Assembly: GCA_001768565.1 (NCBI GenBank)
Contig: MEOE01000028.1
Coordinates: 124,001 to 188,000, forward strand
Origin: Bacteroidetes bacterium GWF2_33_16
Lineage (GTDB): Bacteria > Bacteroidota > Bacteroidia > Bacteroidales > UBA12077
Direction: 5' to 3'
Length of the DNA stretch: 64,000 nt
Shown here: positions 49,137 through 55,494 of the stretch, in pieces
Layout of the letters: each line of letters opens with the position of its first letter
Numbering within the stretch: position 1 is the first letter of the stretch
Translations under genes and position numbers: made by a program
Notes under the pieces: generated by a model
Database searches by the model: none
Told to the model about the DNA's origin: nothing
What the model saw: only the letters and a program-made list of their open reading frames with translations

Positions 49137-50114
49137 ATGTCTGATATTGATAAAATACAAAACTCCATAAAGGAAGAGATGGAGCGATTTGAGCCCTTTT
49201 TTAGGTCGTCTATGCAAACAAAAGTTCCTTTATTGAATATAATTATGAATTATATTTTGCGTCGCAAAGGAAAACAAATGCGACCAATGTTTGTATTTCT
49301 GTCGGCAAAAATGATTAAGGAATCTGTTGGCGATTCCACATATACTGCTGCTTCATTAATCGAGTTGTTGCATACAGCTACTCTTATTCACGATGATGTT
49401 GTTGATGAGGCTTATGAAAGAAGGAGTTTTTTCTCAATTAATGCCCTTTGGAAATCAAAAATCAGTGTTCTGGTTGGTGATTACTTGCTTTCTAAGGGTT
49501 TGCTACTTGCGGTTGAAAAAAACGAATATGAATTGCTGAAAATTGTTTCTGTGGCAGTCCGCGAAATGAGTGAGGGCGAGCTTCTTCAAATTCAAAAATC
49601 AAGAAAACTAAATATAAACGAAGAAATTTATTTTGAAATAATTCGTAAAAAAACAGCAGCTCTTATTGCTGCGTGCGCAGCATGTGGCGCAAAATCTTCA
49701 GACGCAGATGACGAAACCGTTGAAAAAATGAGGTTGTTTGGAGAATATGTAGGTATTGCTTTCCAGATTAAAGACGATTTGCTAGATTATCAAAACAATG
49801 GAATGATTGGCAAGCCGTCAGGTAACGACCTTAAAGAAAAGAAACTTACTTTGCCAATTATTTATGCCTTGGAAAAAACCTCTATTGTTGAAAGAAAACG
49901 AATTATTTCAGAAATAAAACGAAATCATAAAAACAAACAAAAAGTTCAGGAAATTATCAATTTTGCAATTAAAAATGGGGGATTGGAGTATACCCAGCAA
50001 AAAATGAATGAATACCGAGACAAAGCGCTTATTATTCTAAATGATTTTCCTGAAAACCAATCAAGAAAATCGCTTATTGATTTGGTGAATTATGTCGTTT
50101 CAAGAAAAAAATAA
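49137..50114 (+). CDS. Polyprenyl diphosphate synthase
   Basis: 325 residues from the ATG at 49137; a TTG at 49128 is less likely. Both aspartate-rich motifs are present: LIHDDVVDEA (first, residues about 82-91) and FQIKDDLLDYQ (second, about 212-222), plus GKQMRPMFVFLSA and the KKLTLP loop. It condenses isopentenyl diphosphate onto an allylic primer; the all-trans long-chain type (octaprenyl/heptaprenyl for menaquinone) is most likely from length and motif spacing, but product length is not proven. A strong hairpin follows. Confidence 0.92.
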   Translation: MSDIDKIQNSIKEEMERFEPFFRSSMQTKVPLLNIIMNYILRRKGKQMRPMFVFLSAKMIKESVGDSTYTAASLIELLHTATLIHDDVVDEAYERRSFFSINALWKSKISVLVGDYLLSKGLLLAVEKNEYELLKIVSVAVREMSEGELLQIQKSRKLNINEEIYFEIIRKKTAALIAACAACGAKSSDADDETVEKMRLFGEYVGIAFQIKDDLLDYQNNGMIGKPSGNDLKEKKLTLPIIYALEKTSIVERKRIISEIKRNHKNKQKVQEIINFAIKNGGLEYTQQKMNEYRDKALIILNDFPENQSRKSLIDLVNYVVSRKK

Positions 50115-50147
50115 AGCTTTTCAGAATATTTTATTCTGAAAAGCTTT
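50113..50147. terminator. Bidirectional terminator after the polyprenyl synthase gene
   Basis: 15-bp perfect stem, AAAGCTTTTCAGAAT (50113-50127) with ATTCTGAAAAGCTTT (50133-50147), loop of 5 nt; it overlaps the stop codon and serves the convergent oxidoreductase gene also. Confidence 0.88.
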
Positions 50148-50166
50148 AATAAGTATTAAAATACAA

Positions 50167-52017
50167 TTATTTGTTTAGTAAATACTTACCTTCTGTCAAC
50201 AAATCTAGTTCTTTAAGTTTTTCTTCTGTTGGAACACCTTCTTTTGACCAACCTCTTAACTGATAATATTTGTCAAGTAAGGGATTAAGATTAACTGTAA
50301 CTCCTTTTGAATGGCCAGAGCTGTATGACTCATTCAATAATCTTGATGGTAAGGTATCGTCTTTTCTTGTAAGTCCTTCTCGAAGATTAAATAGTTTTTC
50401 CAGCGTCCAGATCCGTTCTCCTATTTTTAGTAATTCAGTAGAATCTATCGTTATTCCTATTACTGCCGACAACATATTTGCATAATGGATAGGGTTTAAA
50501 GCAAAACTGGTAAATATGCATACTCCCATTGAGTCAATAGTACTTATTAAATCTTGGTAGAGCTTTACCAAACCCGGCTTTCCTTTGTCGGTAAAACGGT
50601 TAATTTCAAATGGAGTAGCCAATGCTTCTGTAGATACTAAATAGGCTTTAAGGTGACATGCTCCACGATTGCTGGTTGCTAACGAAAGGCTCATGCCATA
50701 AAATCCGCGTGGATCATATGCCGGTAATTCTAATCCCTTTACTTGCATTGCTATTTCTGGGTGTCCGTATTTTTGAGCAAGCCGCATACTTCCAAGAGAA
50801 AGGACTTTGCCAAAACCTTCAACTTTGCCCATAAGCTCAGTTAATGTAACTACAGCCTCAGCATCTCCAAATTTAAGATCTCTGCCAATATCTTTTCTAA
50901 TTTGCTCATAAGCCTCTTTGTCAAGCAAGCCTTTTTCTGACAGTTCCATTGCACATGCAATGGAACTTCCTGCAGATATTGTATCAATACCATATTCGTT
51001 GCAATTGTAGTTTGCATGTGTAATTTTTTCCAGATCGTGAACAAAACAAGCAGCTCCAAGCGACCATACTGTTTCAAACTCAGGACCCTTTCCCTCTCTC
51101 TCAGGTGTTCGAGAAAGATGCGCACAGCCTATAGGACAAGCCTTGCAGGGCTGACTTCGAACGAAATACAATTCCTTTATAGTTTCTCCTGTAATAGATT
51201 CTGCATTTGCAAAATGACCTTCCTGAAAATTTTTAGTAGGAAAAGCACCTCGGTCGTTTATCAAGCTAACAAGAGCAGGTGTTCCATATTCTTTCAGGGT
51301 ATCTTTGGTTAATGGAGCCTCGCCAATAAAGGTTTGCCATTCTTTTTTGGCATCTTTCAATTCATCTTCATTATTGTAAGGAGTATCTGTTGATCCAATT
51401 ACAACAATTGCCTTTAAGTTTTTTGAACCCATTACTGCACCAACACCAGTTCTTCCTGAGTGATGTCCTTTTTCATTAACGATTGAGGATATTGGCATTT
51501 TTTGTTCTCCGGCAGGACCAATACAAGCAACTCCTGCTTTTGAATCAGTTTCTTGTAATAAAATATCAGTTGTGTCATTTGTTTTTTTGCCCCAGAGTTT
51601 TGATGCATCTCTTATTTCAACTTTTTCTCCATTTAAAAAAACATAACACGGATTTTTAGAAACACCTTCAAAAACCAAAACATCATAACCGGTATTTTTT
51701 AAATCGACACCAAAATGACCGCCAGAATTTGTTTCTCCAATTGCGCCAGTTAACGGGGATTTGCATACCACTGAAAAACGGCTGGCTGTAGCTGCATTAC
51801 TTCCATGTAATGGAGCTGTAACGAAGAGCAACTTATTCTCAGGACCTAAAGGATCAACTTTTGGAGGAAGCTCGTCGAAAAGAAGCTTAACTCCCAAACC
51901 GCGTCCTCCGATAAATTTTAATAAAATATCTTCAGGAATTTGCTCTATTGCCGTGGTGTGATTATTTAGGTTTATTCTTAAAAGCTTATTGTGATAGCCA
52001 CCTTTTATTGTTTTCAT
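50167..52017 (-). CDS. Aldehyde:ferredoxin oxidoreductase (tungsten-pterin family)
   Basis: 616 residues, full length for the AOR family. The four cysteines of the [4Fe-4S] cluster are Cys291, Cys294 and Cys298 (CKACPIGC) plus Cys500 (MGVCIFTS), matching the spacing in the Pyrococcus enzyme. N-terminal FIGGRGLGVKLLFDEL, ASRFSVVCKSPLTGAIGETN and HSGRTGVGAVMGSKNLKAI are family signatures for the bis-pterin cofactor. Such enzymes oxidise aldehydes to acids and reduce ferredoxin, and are oxygen-sensitive. The gene lies 54 bp downstream of deoC on the same strand, so acetaldehyde is a good candidate substrate. Confidence 0.95.
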   Translation of the reverse strand: MKTIKGGYHNKLLRINLNNHTTAIEQIPEDILLKFIGGRGLGVKLLFDELPPKVDPLGPENKLLFVTAPLHGSNAATASRFSVVCKSPLTGAIGETNSGGHFGVDLKNTGYDVLVFEGVSKNPCYVFLNGEKVEIRDASKLWGKKTNDTTDILLQETDSKAGVACIGPAGEQKMPISSIVNEKGHHSGRTGVGAVMGSKNLKAIVVIGSTDTPYNNEDELKDAKKEWQTFIGEAPLTKDTLKEYGTPALVSLINDRGAFPTKNFQEGHFANAESITGETIKELYFVRSQPCKACPIGCAHLSRTPEREGKGPEFETVWSLGAACFVHDLEKITHANYNCNEYGIDTISAGSSIACAMELSEKGLLDKEAYEQIRKDIGRDLKFGDAEAVVTLTELMGKVEGFGKVLSLGSMRLAQKYGHPEIAMQVKGLELPAYDPRGFYGMSLSLATSNRGACHLKAYLVSTEALATPFEINRFTDKGKPGLVKLYQDLISTIDSMGVCIFTSFALNPIHYANMLSAVIGITIDSTELLKIGERIWTLEKLFNLREGLTRKDDTLPSRLLNESYSSGHSKGVTVNLNPLLDKYYQLRGWSKEGVPTEEKLKELDLLTEGKYLLNK

Positions 52018-52071
52018 ATTTTATTTGATATTTTTTGCTTATGAATACTGAATTTATGGTCGAAACAAGTA

Positions 52072-53016
52072 CTAGAAATCCTTGTTTTTTCGATAATGGA
52101 AATGTTTACATCCCTGACATTTCTTTTGGCTTAAAACACGCAACTCGGATCGAAGTTTTGATGTATAGTGGTAAGGGCAAACGAGACAAGGGATAATTCC
52201 TGCGTCGAGCCAGTCTTCTGTATTATGTCGTAACCAGCCCATAGAAGAAACAATGTTTAATGGTCCGCTTGTTCCTATTCTAAATAATTCGGGTGTTTGG
52301 AGCGACTCTTCACGTGCTCCTGCATATATCAAACGCATTGCAGTCATTGCATCAGATATTCCACCTGCCGCCTTAACGCCCTTTTTAGAACCAACAACTT
52401 CGCGCATTATACGCATGTGTTCAGGCATCGCGCCATAAGCATCCATTCCTGTGGAGTTTTTAATAAATTGAGCCTTAGAATTTGCAACCACTTCAGATAC
52501 TTTATATACCTCCTCCTCGGTAAGTTCGGAACTTCGTACAATTACTTTAACCACTTCTCCTTCGGCAGCCTCGCACATCGCATTAATCTCATTAAGAGTA
52601 TAAGAAGGATCTGTTTTAAATCTTCCAACATTGATTACAATATCAATATCAATGTGCCCTTTTCCTTCACCTCTAAGTTGTCGGCTTTTTTTAACAGTAT
52701 CTTCTGTCATTTTTGCCTTTAAATCAATATCTACTTTTCCCAATGGAAAATCCATAACATAGGTTTCTGCTACTCCAGATCCTTTAAGCAAAAGAGGTAA
52801 ACGATCAACCTCAACAGGATTTACGCAGACAGAGGCGCAATTTAATGATATAGCCCAATTAGCCATCTTGTCGAGCTTTGGACCAAGAGTATCTGCTTTT
52901 AAATCTGTAACATCAAGAAATGTTGCTATTCGTTCCGGTGTAAATCGGTGAATGAGCTTAAACATTTCATCTTTGGGAAATTCTACCAAAGGAGTTCCTG
53001 AATTTTTTATTTCCAT
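52072..53016 (-). CDS. deoC: Deoxyribose-phosphate aldolase with Cys-rich C-terminal tail
   Basis: 314 residues. It cleaves 2-deoxyribose 5-phosphate to glyceraldehyde 3-phosphate and acetaldehyde. Catalytic features are intact: Asp in HIDIDIVINVG, Schiff-base Lys186 in FIKNSTGMD and Lys215 in GVKAAGGISDAM. The barrel should end near residue 255 (PELFRIGTSGPLN). The remaining 55 residues are unusual and hold two CxxC pairs, Cys277/Cys280 (IPCLVCPYHY) and Cys300/Cys303 (KKCQGCKHFHY), as in a zinc-ribbon or rubredoxin-like metal site. Most DeoC proteins (about 220-260 residues) lack this. Followed by the aldehyde:ferredoxin oxidoreductase gene. Confidence 0.93.
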   Translation of the reverse strand: MEIKNSGTPLVEFPKDEMFKLIHRFTPERIATFLDVTDLKADTLGPKLDKMANWAISLNCASVCVNPVEVDRLPLLLKGSGVAETYVMDFPLGKVDIDLKAKMTEDTVKKSRQLRGEGKGHIDIDIVINVGRFKTDPSYTLNEINAMCEAAEGEVVKVIVRSSELTEEEVYKVSEVVANSKAQFIKNSTGMDAYGAMPEHMRIMREVVGSKKGVKAAGGISDAMTAMRLIYAGAREESLQTPELFRIGTSGPLNIVSSMGWLRHNTEDWLDAGIIPCLVCPYHYTSKLRSELRVLSQKKCQGCKHFHYRKNKDF

Positions 53017-53328: not shown

Positions 53329-53658
53329 TTATTCTTTAAGTTTGGGATTTGACTTGTGACGATTAGTATCCCTATTGGTTTTCTTTTCAAGGCTCTTTGT
53401 TAATGCCTCTGTAAGATTTACTCCTGTTTGGTTTGCCAAACATATAAGAACAAAAAGAATATCAGCCATTTCTTCATCGAGCTCTTTATTTTTATCCGTT
53501 TCTTTAAATGACTGTTCTCCATATTTGCGGGCAACAATTCGGGCTAGTTCACCAACTTCTTCGGTTAAAAGCACCATGTTTGTTAGTTCGTTGAAATAAC
53601 GAACGCCATGGGTTTTAATCCAATCATCAACTAATTTTTGAGCTTCCTGAATGGTCAT
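53329..53658 (-). CDS. MazG-like nucleotide pyrophosphohydrolase
   Basis: 109 residues from the ATG at 53658; a TTG at 53685 would add nine. The MazG metal motif is seen in LLTEEVGELARIVA and ELDEEMADILFVLICLA (the EExxE...ExxD pattern). It should hydrolyse a nucleoside triphosphate to the monophosphate; substrate range (dCTP, dUTP, modified NTP) is unknown. It overlaps the end of the MFS gene by 32 nt, so the two are translationally close. A charged tail ends the protein (RDTNRHKSNPKLKE). Confidence 0.88.
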   Translation of the reverse strand: MTIQEAQKLVDDWIKTHGVRYFNELTNMVLLTEEVGELARIVARKYGEQSFKETDKNKELDEEMADILFVLICLANQTGVNLTEALTKSLEKKTNRDTNRHKSNPKLKE

Positions 53659-55042
53659 TGTTGTTGTTTTTTTTGTTTCTTGCAAGCGAAAAAAAGATTC
53701 CTATAAAGCAAAGAAAAGCAAATATTATAAATGCTGTGCGAATACTGGCAACAAATGCATCAGAATTTGAGGAATTTATTTCTACATTTCCAATAAAAAT
53801 AGAAAAAAGTAACATTGCAACACCCATACTCGACATTTGCCCAACCAATCGCATCGTACCAACGGTTGCTGATGCAATTCCGTAATATTTTTTCTCAACT
53901 GAGCCCATAATCGAATTGGTGTTTGGAGAAGAAAACAAAGCATAACCAATACCAAAAATTACAAGCACTGGTATTATAAAATAAATACTCGTGTCAGAAT
54001 TAATAAAGCTTAAGATAAACAATCCAGCTGAAAGCAAAGCCATTCCAACAGAAGCTACTTTTCCCGGGTTTATTCTATCCGACAATTTGCCTGTTATAGG
54101 TGAAAAAATGGTCATTAATAAGGGCTGTACTACTAAAATTTGTCCCGCCTGCTGAGGATTAAAACCTTTAATGTATTGCAGGTACAGACTTAACAAAAAT
54201 CCAATTGCAAACGTAGCGCTGTAATTAATTAATGCTGCATAATTCGAAAAGGCAAAAACACGGTTTGTTTTAAAAAGATTGATATTGATTACAGGAAATA
54301 ATTGGATTGATTCAAAGCGAATAAACAAATAAAGACCAAGCAATCCTGCTCCGGTTAGAATTATTCCTGAAGTTCCTGGCAATTGTCCAAATCCATACAT
54401 TAACGAAGAAATGGCAATCCCAAAAATTAGTGAGCCTTTCCAGTCAAATTTTTCACCTTTTGCTTCACGCCAGTCTCCAGAAAGGAATATAAAACTAAGA
54501 ACCAAAGATATTAATCCCAACGGAATTGTAAGTAAAAACAAACTATGCCAGCCCAAAATTTTGGTAATTATTCCTCCAATAAATGGCCCCATTGTTAAAC
54601 CTGCATATACAGATGCAACAACTATTCCAAGTGCTTTACCTCTGTTTTCTTTTGGAAAAACGGATGTAATAATGGCCATTCCGGTACCAAAAATCATTGC
54701 GCCTCCCATTCCCTGGAATATTCGAAAAATTATTAAAAGGGTTATGTCTGGTGCAAAAGCGCAAAGGAGAGTAGCAATACTGTAAATTATTAAACCAGCA
54801 TTAAAAATTAGTTTTCGTCCATAAATATCAGCCAACCGACCAAACGGAACAAGAAAAATTGCCGATGATAACAAAAAGGATGTTGCCACCCAGCTTAATC
54901 CAATAGCATTTGCATTAAAATCTTTACCAATTGTAGGAAGAGCAACATTTATAGCAGAACTTATAAATGGAGTAATAAATGAAGCCACAGATGCAATTAT
55001 AAGTGTTATGGTTTGTAGCTTTTTGGCCGAAAGATCTTTCAT
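53627..55042 (-). CDS. MFS transporter, DHA2-type (14 helices)
   Basis: 471 residues with about 14 membrane helices. Motif A is in PFGRLADIYGRKLIF, and the N-terminal INVALPTIGKDFNANAIGLS with WVATSFLLSSAIFLVPFGRL is the DHA2 drug:proton antiporter signature (EmrB/QacA relatives). Substrate unknown; multidrug export is the usual guess. Its start codon overlaps the dtd stop by one base, and its end overlaps the mazG-like gene, so it is inserted in the middle of a tight run dtd - MFS - mazG. The C-terminal tail is hydrophilic and Asn/Ser-rich. Confidence 0.92.
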   Translation of the reverse strand: MKDLSAKKLQTITLIIASVASFITPFISSAINVALPTIGKDFNANAIGLSWVATSFLLSSAIFLVPFGRLADIYGRKLIFNAGLIIYSIATLLCAFAPDITLLIIFRIFQGMGGAMIFGTGMAIITSVFPKENRGKALGIVVASVYAGLTMGPFIGGIITKILGWHSLFLLTIPLGLISLVLSFIFLSGDWREAKGEKFDWKGSLIFGIAISSLMYGFGQLPGTSGIILTGAGLLGLYLFIRFESIQLFPVININLFKTNRVFAFSNYAALINYSATFAIGFLLSLYLQYIKGFNPQQAGQILVVQPLLMTIFSPITGKLSDRINPGKVASVGMALLSAGLFILSFINSDTSIYFIIPVLVIFGIGYALFSSPNTNSIMGSVEKKYYGIASATVGTMRLVGQMSSMGVAMLLFSIFIGNVEINSSNSDAFVASIRTAFIIFAFLCFIGIFFSLARNKKNNNNDHSGSSKIS

Positions 55043-55494
55043 TACTCTTTGTTTTTTGTGTCTATTAATATGGTAACAGGGCCATCGTTTATTAGTTCAA
55101 CTTGCATATTTGCACCAAATTCGCCTGTTTTTATTTCTTTTCCTAAATCAATGGCGAGCTGTTGTATAAACTGATTGTATAGAGGAATGGCAATTTCCGG
55201 TTTAGCGGCTTGAATATAGGAGGGACGATTTCCTTTTTTTACTTTGGCGTGCAGCGTAAACTGGCTAATAGCCAGAATTTCGCCATTTATATCTTTTACA
55301 GAGAGATTCATTACTCCATTCTCATCATCAAAAATACGTAATTGAACTATTTTACTGCTAAGCCAATTAATATCTTCGCTAGTATCATTTTCTTCAATTC
55401 CAATAAGTAATAATAACCCGGTATTAATCGCTGATTTTATTTTGTTTTCAATTGAAACAGAGGCCTTGCTAACACGTTGAATTACTGCTCTCAT
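55042..55494 (-). CDS. dtd: D-aminoacyl-tRNA deacylase
   Basis: 150 residues, typical for Dtd. MRAVIQRVSKASVSIENKIK at the N-terminus, SQFTLHAKVKKGNRPSYIQA (containing the SQFTL motif) and the C-terminal GEFGANMQVELINDGPVTIL with the GP dipeptide (Gly-cisPro) are all conserved. It removes D-amino acids or glycine mischarged on tRNA. First gene of the run with MFS and mazG-like genes. Confidence 0.97.
   Translation of the reverse strand: MRAVIQRVSKASVSIENKIKSAINTGLLLLIGIEENDTSEDINWLSSKIVQLRIFDDENGVMNLSVKDINGEILAISQFTLHAKVKKGNRPSYIQAAKPEIAIPLYNQFIQQLAIDLGKEIKTGEFGANMQVELINDGPVTILIDTKNKE

What the first reader, a model, noticed from the sequence alone, without database searches (positions are those of the whole stretch)
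50167..53016. deoC-aldehyde:ferredoxin oxidoreductase operon: a possible deoxyribose-to-acetate pathway
Seen: deoC and a full AOR gene are on the same strand, 54 bp apart, and the AOR has all four cluster cysteines. Known: DeoC releases acetaldehyde; AOR-family enzymes oxidise aldehydes to acids with ferredoxin as acceptor. Inference: the two form a unit that detoxifies acetaldehyde from DNA-derived deoxyribose and saves its electrons as reduced ferredoxin, replacing the usual NAD-linked aldehyde dehydrogenase. A secreted nuclease, 2.6 kb away on the other side, could supply the DNA, though it is a separate transcript. I do not know of a described pairing of this kind in Bacteroidota.
Basis: partly seen in the sequence, partly recalled or inferred. 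Interest (0 to 1): 0.62.

Follow-up and report, generated by a model that had tools for sequence, protein, structure and literature searches.

The report
Paired deoxyribose aldolase and aldehyde oxidoreductase
Some sediment bacteria keep two genes side by side, one that splits a DNA-derived sugar and releases toxic acetaldehyde and one whose enzyme family burns such aldehydes, and the first enzyme carries a set of residues that disappear whenever the second gene is lost, which suggests the two enzymes physically work together.

Summary
In detail: deoC (52072-53016, minus strand) and a complete AOR gene (50167-52017, minus strand) lie 54 bp apart, with all metal-site and active-site residues. 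It is far more than a chance adjacency. In 149 genomes of the order, the same five (five families) carry both this DeoC and this AOR, adjacent in all five. A scan of 84,980 species found 29 further deoC-AOR pairs, in Bacteroidales and relatives, UBP2 and Chloroflexota, with changing flanks. The linked AORs form one clade, sister to known acetaldehyde-oxidising AORs. The DeoC is an undescribed subfamily with a four-cysteine C-terminal extension. In nine members without an adjacent AOR (about five independent losses), catalytic residues and cysteines persist, but a patch (K50, W54, W261, W269, R289, C-terminal K-[DE]-F) is lost. Positions chosen in Bacteroidota predict the Chloroflexota pattern (0 of 20,000 permutations). 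Best reading: a dedicated two-enzyme module in which AOR oxidises DeoC's acetaldehyde to acetate onto ferredoxin, probably as a physical complex. Shown: linkage, co-inheritance, residue co-loss. Inferred: substrate, direction, complex. The nuclease link is not conserved beyond close relatives; replacement of NAD-linked aldehyde dehydrogenase is not shown. No searchable paper describes this pairing.

The parts
52072..53016 (-). deoC: deoxyribose-phosphate aldolase of a divergent subfamily (314 aa); catalytic residues D125, K157, K186 (Schiff-base Lys), K215 intact
52075..52266 (-). C-terminal extension of DeoC (residues 251-314), absent from ordinary DeoC; no Pfam or PDB sequence match
52177..52188 (-). 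first Cys pair of the extension, C277-x2-C280 (all complete subfamily members); probable metal site with the second pair
52108..52119 (-). second Cys pair of the extension, C300-x2-C303 (all complete subfamily members)
52075..52089 (-). C-terminal end KNKDF (residues 310-314): K[DE][FLY] end present in all AOR-linked, absent in all AOR-less members; proposed AOR docking end
52018..52071 (-). 54-bp intergenic gap between deoC and AOR; -40 to 229 bp in 27 linked loci, stop/start overlap in some Chloroflexota
50167..52017 (-). AOR: tungsten aldehyde:ferredoxin oxidoreductase large subunit (616 aa), no small subunit adjacent
51124..51147 (-). AOR cluster motif C291-x2-C294-x3-C298 (fourth ligand C500 at 50518-50520)
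50112..50148 (-). stem-loop plus T run after AOR, terminator-like

Best explanation
deoC and AOR are a dedicated, co-inherited two-enzyme module. DeoC (an aldolase of a tailed subfamily) splits deoxyribose-5-phosphate into glyceraldehyde-3-phosphate and acetaldehyde; the AOR next to it oxidises the acetaldehyde to acetate and passes the electrons to ferredoxin, which can be reoxidised through Rnf. The aldolase carries a set of residues (on barrel helices 1 and 8, in its C-terminal extension and at its extreme C-terminus) that is maintained only where AOR is present, so the two enzymes most likely bind each other and hand over acetaldehyde locally. SHOWN: adjacency across phyla, one-clade origin of the linked AORs, co-loss of the residue set with AOR, intact catalytic residues in both. 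INFERRED: the substrate (acetaldehyde), direction (oxidation), ferredoxin as acceptor, and the physical complex.
For: Order survey: the same 5 of 149 genomes (5 families) carry the 68-72% DeoC and the 62-65% AOR, adjacent in all. Species-wide scan: 29 more loci of the tailed DeoC have AOR directly downstream, in Bacteroidales and relatives, UBP2 and Chloroflexota, with gaps of -40 to 229 bp and changing outer neighbours. The 30 linked AORs are one clade with support 100, next to the clade holding P. furiosus 1aor and C. autoethanogenum 9g7j. Nine AOR-less members keep all four Cys and nearly all catalytic residues but lose the residue set; AOR presence and the K[DE][FLY] end each change 5 times and agree in 38 of 38 rows. 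L090 and L081 share 80% core identity but 3/14 of these positions, whereas AOR-linked L081 and L086 share 66% core but 11/14. Ten positions selected on Bacteroidota-type sequences score 7-10/10 in Chloroflexota with AOR and 0-1/10 without (0/20,000 permutations). AOR-less Bacteroidota genomes have no close AOR elsewhere. RnfC in 5 of 6 genomes tested.
Against: No biochemistry or structure of a member. On starred branches there are only 4 independent contrasts (sign test p = 0.125). No nucleoside-catabolism genes beside the pair; deoB (TIGR01696) and pyrimidine-nucleoside phosphorylase (TIGR02644) models do not pass their cut-offs in these genomes, though PNP-family genes are present. The AlphaFold read-through fusion (pTM 0.81) cannot prove an interface: no PAE or control was available, and AOR stretches of about 235-276 and 427-467 were modelled poorly. 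That the AOR-dependent residues form one surface patch is inferred from their secondary-structure positions; no coordinates could be inspected.
Confidence: 0.65

Rival explanations
1. The pair is a metabolic operon only: the enzymes act in sequence on free acetaldehyde without touching; the AOR-dependent DeoC residues have another cause (oligomer form, regulation, stability).
For: Linkage and co-inheritance are explained equally well. No complex has been seen; the fusion model is only weakly informative.
Against: It does not explain why residues on separate DeoC elements vanish repeatedly with AOR while catalytic residues and cysteines stay.
Confidence: 0.25
2. AOR acts on DeoC's other product, glyceraldehyde-3-phosphate (GAPOR-like), or on another aldehyde from a different aldol substrate.
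For: DeoC also makes glyceraldehyde-3-phosphate; the linked AOR clade has its own invariant positions close in sequence to active-site residues (K242, E243 before T246; G428 near Y434).
Against: Archaeal GAPOR model scores 28.9 bits against a 1300 cut-off; the nearest relatives are general aldehyde AORs; DeoC passes the deoC equivalog cut-off.
Confidence: 0.08
3. The pair runs in reverse: AOR reduces acetate to acetaldehyde with ferredoxin and DeoC condenses it with glyceraldehyde-3-phosphate to make deoxyribose-5-phosphate.
For: Both reactions are reversible (own knowledge); ethanol production started by a tungsten AOR is reported in C. autoethanogenum (PMC12727526, abstract).
Against: All six genomes tested have a ribonucleotide reductase, so there is no evident need; acid reduction requires very low-potential ferredoxin (own knowledge).
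Confidence: 0.04
4. The adjacency is accidental or a local synteny relic.
For: The wider block (endonuclease, dtd, MFS, mazG) is kept only among the closest relatives.
Against: deoC-AOR alone is kept across phyla with changing flanks.
Confidence: 0.02

Closest known systems
Class I tungsten oxidoreductases of the PfAOR type (clade 87; PMC13328260)
   Same: Lone large subunit, one [4Fe-4S] cluster, Thr/Glu/Tyr/His active-site residues, nearest solved relatives 9mqx, 9g7j, 1aor
   Different: Forms its own clade, found beside a tailed DeoC in all cases seen here; has a 5-residue insertion near 371-375 and invariant K242/E243, S274, E547; the 2026 classification text does not mention DeoC or any aldolase
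Deoxyribose-phosphate aldolase (DeoC/DERA)
   Same: TIM-barrel fold, Schiff-base lysine, phosphate-site RIGTS; top structural matches are DERAs (target TM-score 0.94)
   Different: About 33% identity to solved DERAs; about 60-residue C-terminal extension with CxxC-x19-CxxC; AOR-dependent residues
Aldolase-acetaldehyde dehydrogenase channelling complexes (DmpFG/BphIJ type; from memory)
   Same: An aldolase releases acetaldehyde and a partner oxidises it, proposed local transfer
   Different: Different aldolase family, tungsten/ferredoxin enzyme instead of an NAD/CoA dehydrogenase, free acetate instead of acetyl-CoA
Pelobacter carbinolicus deoxyribose route (PMC3543383)
   Same: Predicted deoB-deoC deoxyribose breakdown to acetaldehyde in an organism with several acetaldehyde:ferredoxin oxidoreductases
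   Different: The AORs are not reported as linked to deoC there; no dedicated pair described

Membership tests
DeoC / deoxyribose-phosphate aldolase | deoC equivalog model over cut-off | tested here: met
   TIGR00126 139.1 bits vs 117.3; Pfam DeoC 23.0 vs 23.8, just under
DeoC / deoxyribose-phosphate aldolase | Schiff-base Lys, second Lys, Asp proton relay | tested here: met
   K186, K215, D125, K157 invariant over 34 aligned sequences; aligned with L. brevis DERA
DeoC / deoxyribose-phosphate aldolase | TIM-barrel DERA fold | tested here: met
   model pLDDT 93.9; top hits 3ngj, 4xbs, target TM 0.94
DeoC / deoxyribose-phosphate aldolase | activity on deoxyribose-5-phosphate | not testable with these tools
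   needs assay
Class I tungsten oxidoreductase (AOR) | both AFOR domains, four cluster Cys, Thr/Glu/Tyr/His active-site set | tested here: met
Class I tungsten oxidoreductase (AOR) | no WorS small subunit encoded beside it | tested here: met
   neighbours are deoC and a polyprenyl synthase; other pairs show no constant third gene
Class I tungsten oxidoreductase (AOR) | tungsten content, ferredoxin as acceptor, acetaldehyde oxidation | not testable with these tools
   needs purified protein
GAPOR | match to archaeal GAPOR equivalog | tested here: not met
   28.9 bits vs cut-off 1300
Channelling aldolase-dehydrogenase complex | stable complex with transfer of acetaldehyde | tested here: inconclusive
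   co-loss of DeoC residues with AOR supports contact; fusion model inconclusive

The most novel reading that the evidence does not exclude
DeoC and AOR form a physical complex, docked through the DeoC C-terminal extension, its K-[DE]-F end and Trp/Arg residues, that passes acetaldehyde directly from an aldolase to a tungsten enzyme. It would be a kind of aldolase-oxidoreductase coupling not described before, giving acetate and reduced ferredoxin instead of acetyl-CoA and NADH.
Probability: 0.5. Interest if true: 0.75.

Novelty: new variant of a known kind. Interest (0 to 1): 0.62.

Why it matters
Most clades of tungsten oxidoreductases have no known physiological role (only 5 of 92 do, PMC13328260). 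A conserved partner that makes a defined aldehyde gives this AOR clade a concrete substrate and role, and gives a route by which anaerobic sediment bacteria could recover energy, as reduced ferredoxin, from DNA-derived deoxyribose. The AOR-dependent residues turn 'are they a complex?' into a direct experiment.

Tried and rejected
Linkage to the secreted nuclease, MFS transporter and mazG as part of the system: kept only in the closest relatives. Riboswitch or known RNA upstream: none. Cys tail as a known domain: no Pfam or PDB sequence match. Cys tail as AOR-specific: rejected, it stays in AOR-less members. A standard replacement enzyme beside AOR-less deoC: neighbours are a secretion ATPase, a nitrilase-type hydrolase, a CO-dehydrogenase-type flavoprotein on the other strand and a phosphoesterase, with no common theme. 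Replacement of aldehyde dehydrogenase: not shown, PF00171 genes are present with and without the pair. A phylum-wide sample of 395 genomes found no further AOR of this clade, so the pair is rare and patchy.

Full report
OBSERVATION. The window carries, on the minus strand, deoC (52072-53016, 314 aa) and 54 bp downstream an AOR gene (50167-52017, 616 aa). DeoC passes the NCBIfam deoC equivalog cut-off (139.1 vs 117.3 bits) but is just under Pfam's. AOR matches both AFOR Pfam domains over full length; its best solved relatives are 9mqx, 9g7j and 1aor. All residues expected for cluster and cofactor are there: C291/C294/C298/C500 and T246/E315/Y434/H455, equivalent to P. furiosus C288/C291/C295/C494 and T243/E313/Y427/H448. 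A terminator-like stem follows AOR. The genome has one deoC and four AOR-family genes.

LINKAGE. In 149 genomes of the order searched separately with each protein, only five carry a DeoC closer than 41% identity: the window genome and four others in four other families (68-72%). The same five, and no others, carry an AOR above 60% identity, and the two genes are adjacent in all five, deoC first. A genome of the same genus (G097) has only an ordinary DeoC (32%) and no such AOR. A scan of 84,980 species genomes with the DeoC alignment brought 63 loci; the tailed DeoC subfamily (48-85% identity) is in about 40 of them, and 29 have AOR directly downstream, including Bacteroidales, records titled Chlorobiota, UBP2 and Anaerolineae. 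Three more are cut off by contig ends (L077, L103, L121). Gaps run from -40 to 229 bp, with stop/start overlaps in some Chloroflexota. Outer neighbours differ; the nuclease-dtd-MFS-mazG block of the window is kept only among the closest relatives. A phylum-wide sample of 395 genomes found no further AOR of this clade. Record titles are submitters' names and some bins may be mislabelled.

PHYLOGENY. The 30 linked AORs form one clade (SH-aLRT 100), sister to a clade with P. furiosus and C. autoethanogenum AOR. The linked DeoCs group in a broadly matching way, with most Chloroflexota apart from Bacteroidota-type sequences. I compared the topologies by eye only. One ancestral pair, passed on together, is the simplest reading.

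ANATOMY OF DeoC. The model is confident (pLDDT 93.9, pTM 0.92). Its barrel matches DERA structures with target TM-score 0.94; about 60 C-terminal residues lie outside the match. That extension has CxxCP-x19-CxxC in every complete member (the spacing varies slightly), is missing from ordinary DeoCs, and has no Pfam or PDB sequence match. It stays in AOR-less members, so a structural metal site is the simplest guess.

AOR-DEPENDENT RESIDUES. Nine complete members lack an adjacent AOR. In the five outside Chloroflexota no close AOR exists elsewhere in the genome (best about 37% identity or none); the Thermoflexus group has an unlinked 46-47% AOR outside the linked clade. In the Thermoflexus locus L098 the gene that follows AOR in L094/L096 comes directly after deoC, as if AOR had been lost cleanly. 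In all nine the catalytic residues and cysteines persist, apart from a C60 change in L102, a position that also varies in AOR-linked L101. Yet R289 (29/29 vs 0/9), F314 (27/29 vs 0/9), W261 and W269 (29/29 vs 1/9), K312 (29/29 vs 1/9) and W54 (29/29 vs 2/9) are lost. AOR presence and the K[DE][FLY] end each need five changes on the DeoC tree and agree in 38 of 38 rows; starred branches give four independent contrasts, all concordant, too few for significance (p = 0.125). To avoid circularity I selected ten positions on Bacteroidota-type sequences alone: Chloroflexota with AOR keep 7-10 of them, Chloroflexota without keep 0-1, and no random draw among conserved positions did as well in 20,000. 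That test treats positions as exchangeable and rests on one loss event in Chloroflexota; the reverse test (Chloroflexota to Bacteroidota) is weaker (mean 14.4 vs 5-9 of 26). General decay is unlikely: L090 keeps 80% core identity to L081 but 3/14 of these positions. K50/W54 lie on the helix after strand 1 and W261 on the helix after strand 8, which are neighbours in a closed barrel, so one surface patch is plausible; I had no coordinates to check it.

COMPLEX MODEL. deoC and AOR are in frame across the gap, so a read-through of the window DNA, with stop codons read as Gly, was folded as one chain with relatives: pLDDT 80.3, pTM 0.81. Two unrelated domains of these sizes would be expected to give a lower pTM (my estimate), which hints at a preferred placement, but there was no PAE or negative control and parts of AOR were poor. 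I count it as weak.

METABOLIC SETTING. The genome has purine-nucleoside-phosphorylase-family genes, Rnf, ribonucleotide reductase and two aldehyde dehydrogenases, one lactaldehyde-type. DeoB and pyrimidine-nucleoside phosphorylase models do not pass, so the route from nucleosides to deoxyribose-5-phosphate is not fully accounted for. Replacement of NAD-linked oxidation is therefore not shown.

LITERATURE. Full-text searches gave no description of a deoC-AOR pair. The 2026 classification of more than 4,000 tungsten oxidoreductases by gene context does not mention aldolase or DeoC in its text (PMC13328260); its supplement could not be read. The nearest statement is the Pelobacter carbinolicus genome paper, which predicts deoxyribose breakdown to acetaldehyde and lists four AORs without linking them to deoC (PMC3543383). 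Only open-licence papers were searchable.

VERDICT. Observation confirmed; the pairing is a real, conserved module; the acetaldehyde-to-acetate function is likely; physical coupling is probable but unproven; the nuclease link and the replacement claim are not supported.

Noticed in passing
L110, L112, L113, L115-L118 (Oscillospiraceae and related Clostridia): Their DeoC ends in a different Cys-rich tail, HKC[VI]NCGNCKxxCPxGNVEI, which resembles a ferredoxin-type [4Fe-4S] motif; an iron-sulphur aldolase would be odd.
   Followed up: no
L098 versus L094/L096: A 174-aa DUF6812 protein follows AOR in Anaerolineae and directly follows deoC in Thermoflexus-type L098, where AOR is missing: apparent clean loss of AOR from the operon.
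   Followed up: partly
50167-52017, AOR residues 242-243, 274, 428, 547 and insertion 371-375: Positions invariant or nearly so in linked AORs and absent or rare in unlinked ones; K242/E243 and G428 lie close in sequence to active-site T246 and Y434, possibly the partner or substrate side.
   Followed up: partly
window 53329-55494 (-): mazG, an MFS transporter and dtd overlap or abut on the same strand upstream of deoC, with the secreted endonuclease divergent; conserved only in the nearest clade.
   Followed up: partly
G097 versus G000 (same genus): The sister genome has an ordinary DeoC (32% identity) instead of the tailed one, suggesting gene replacement or transfer of the pair within the genus.
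   Followed up: no
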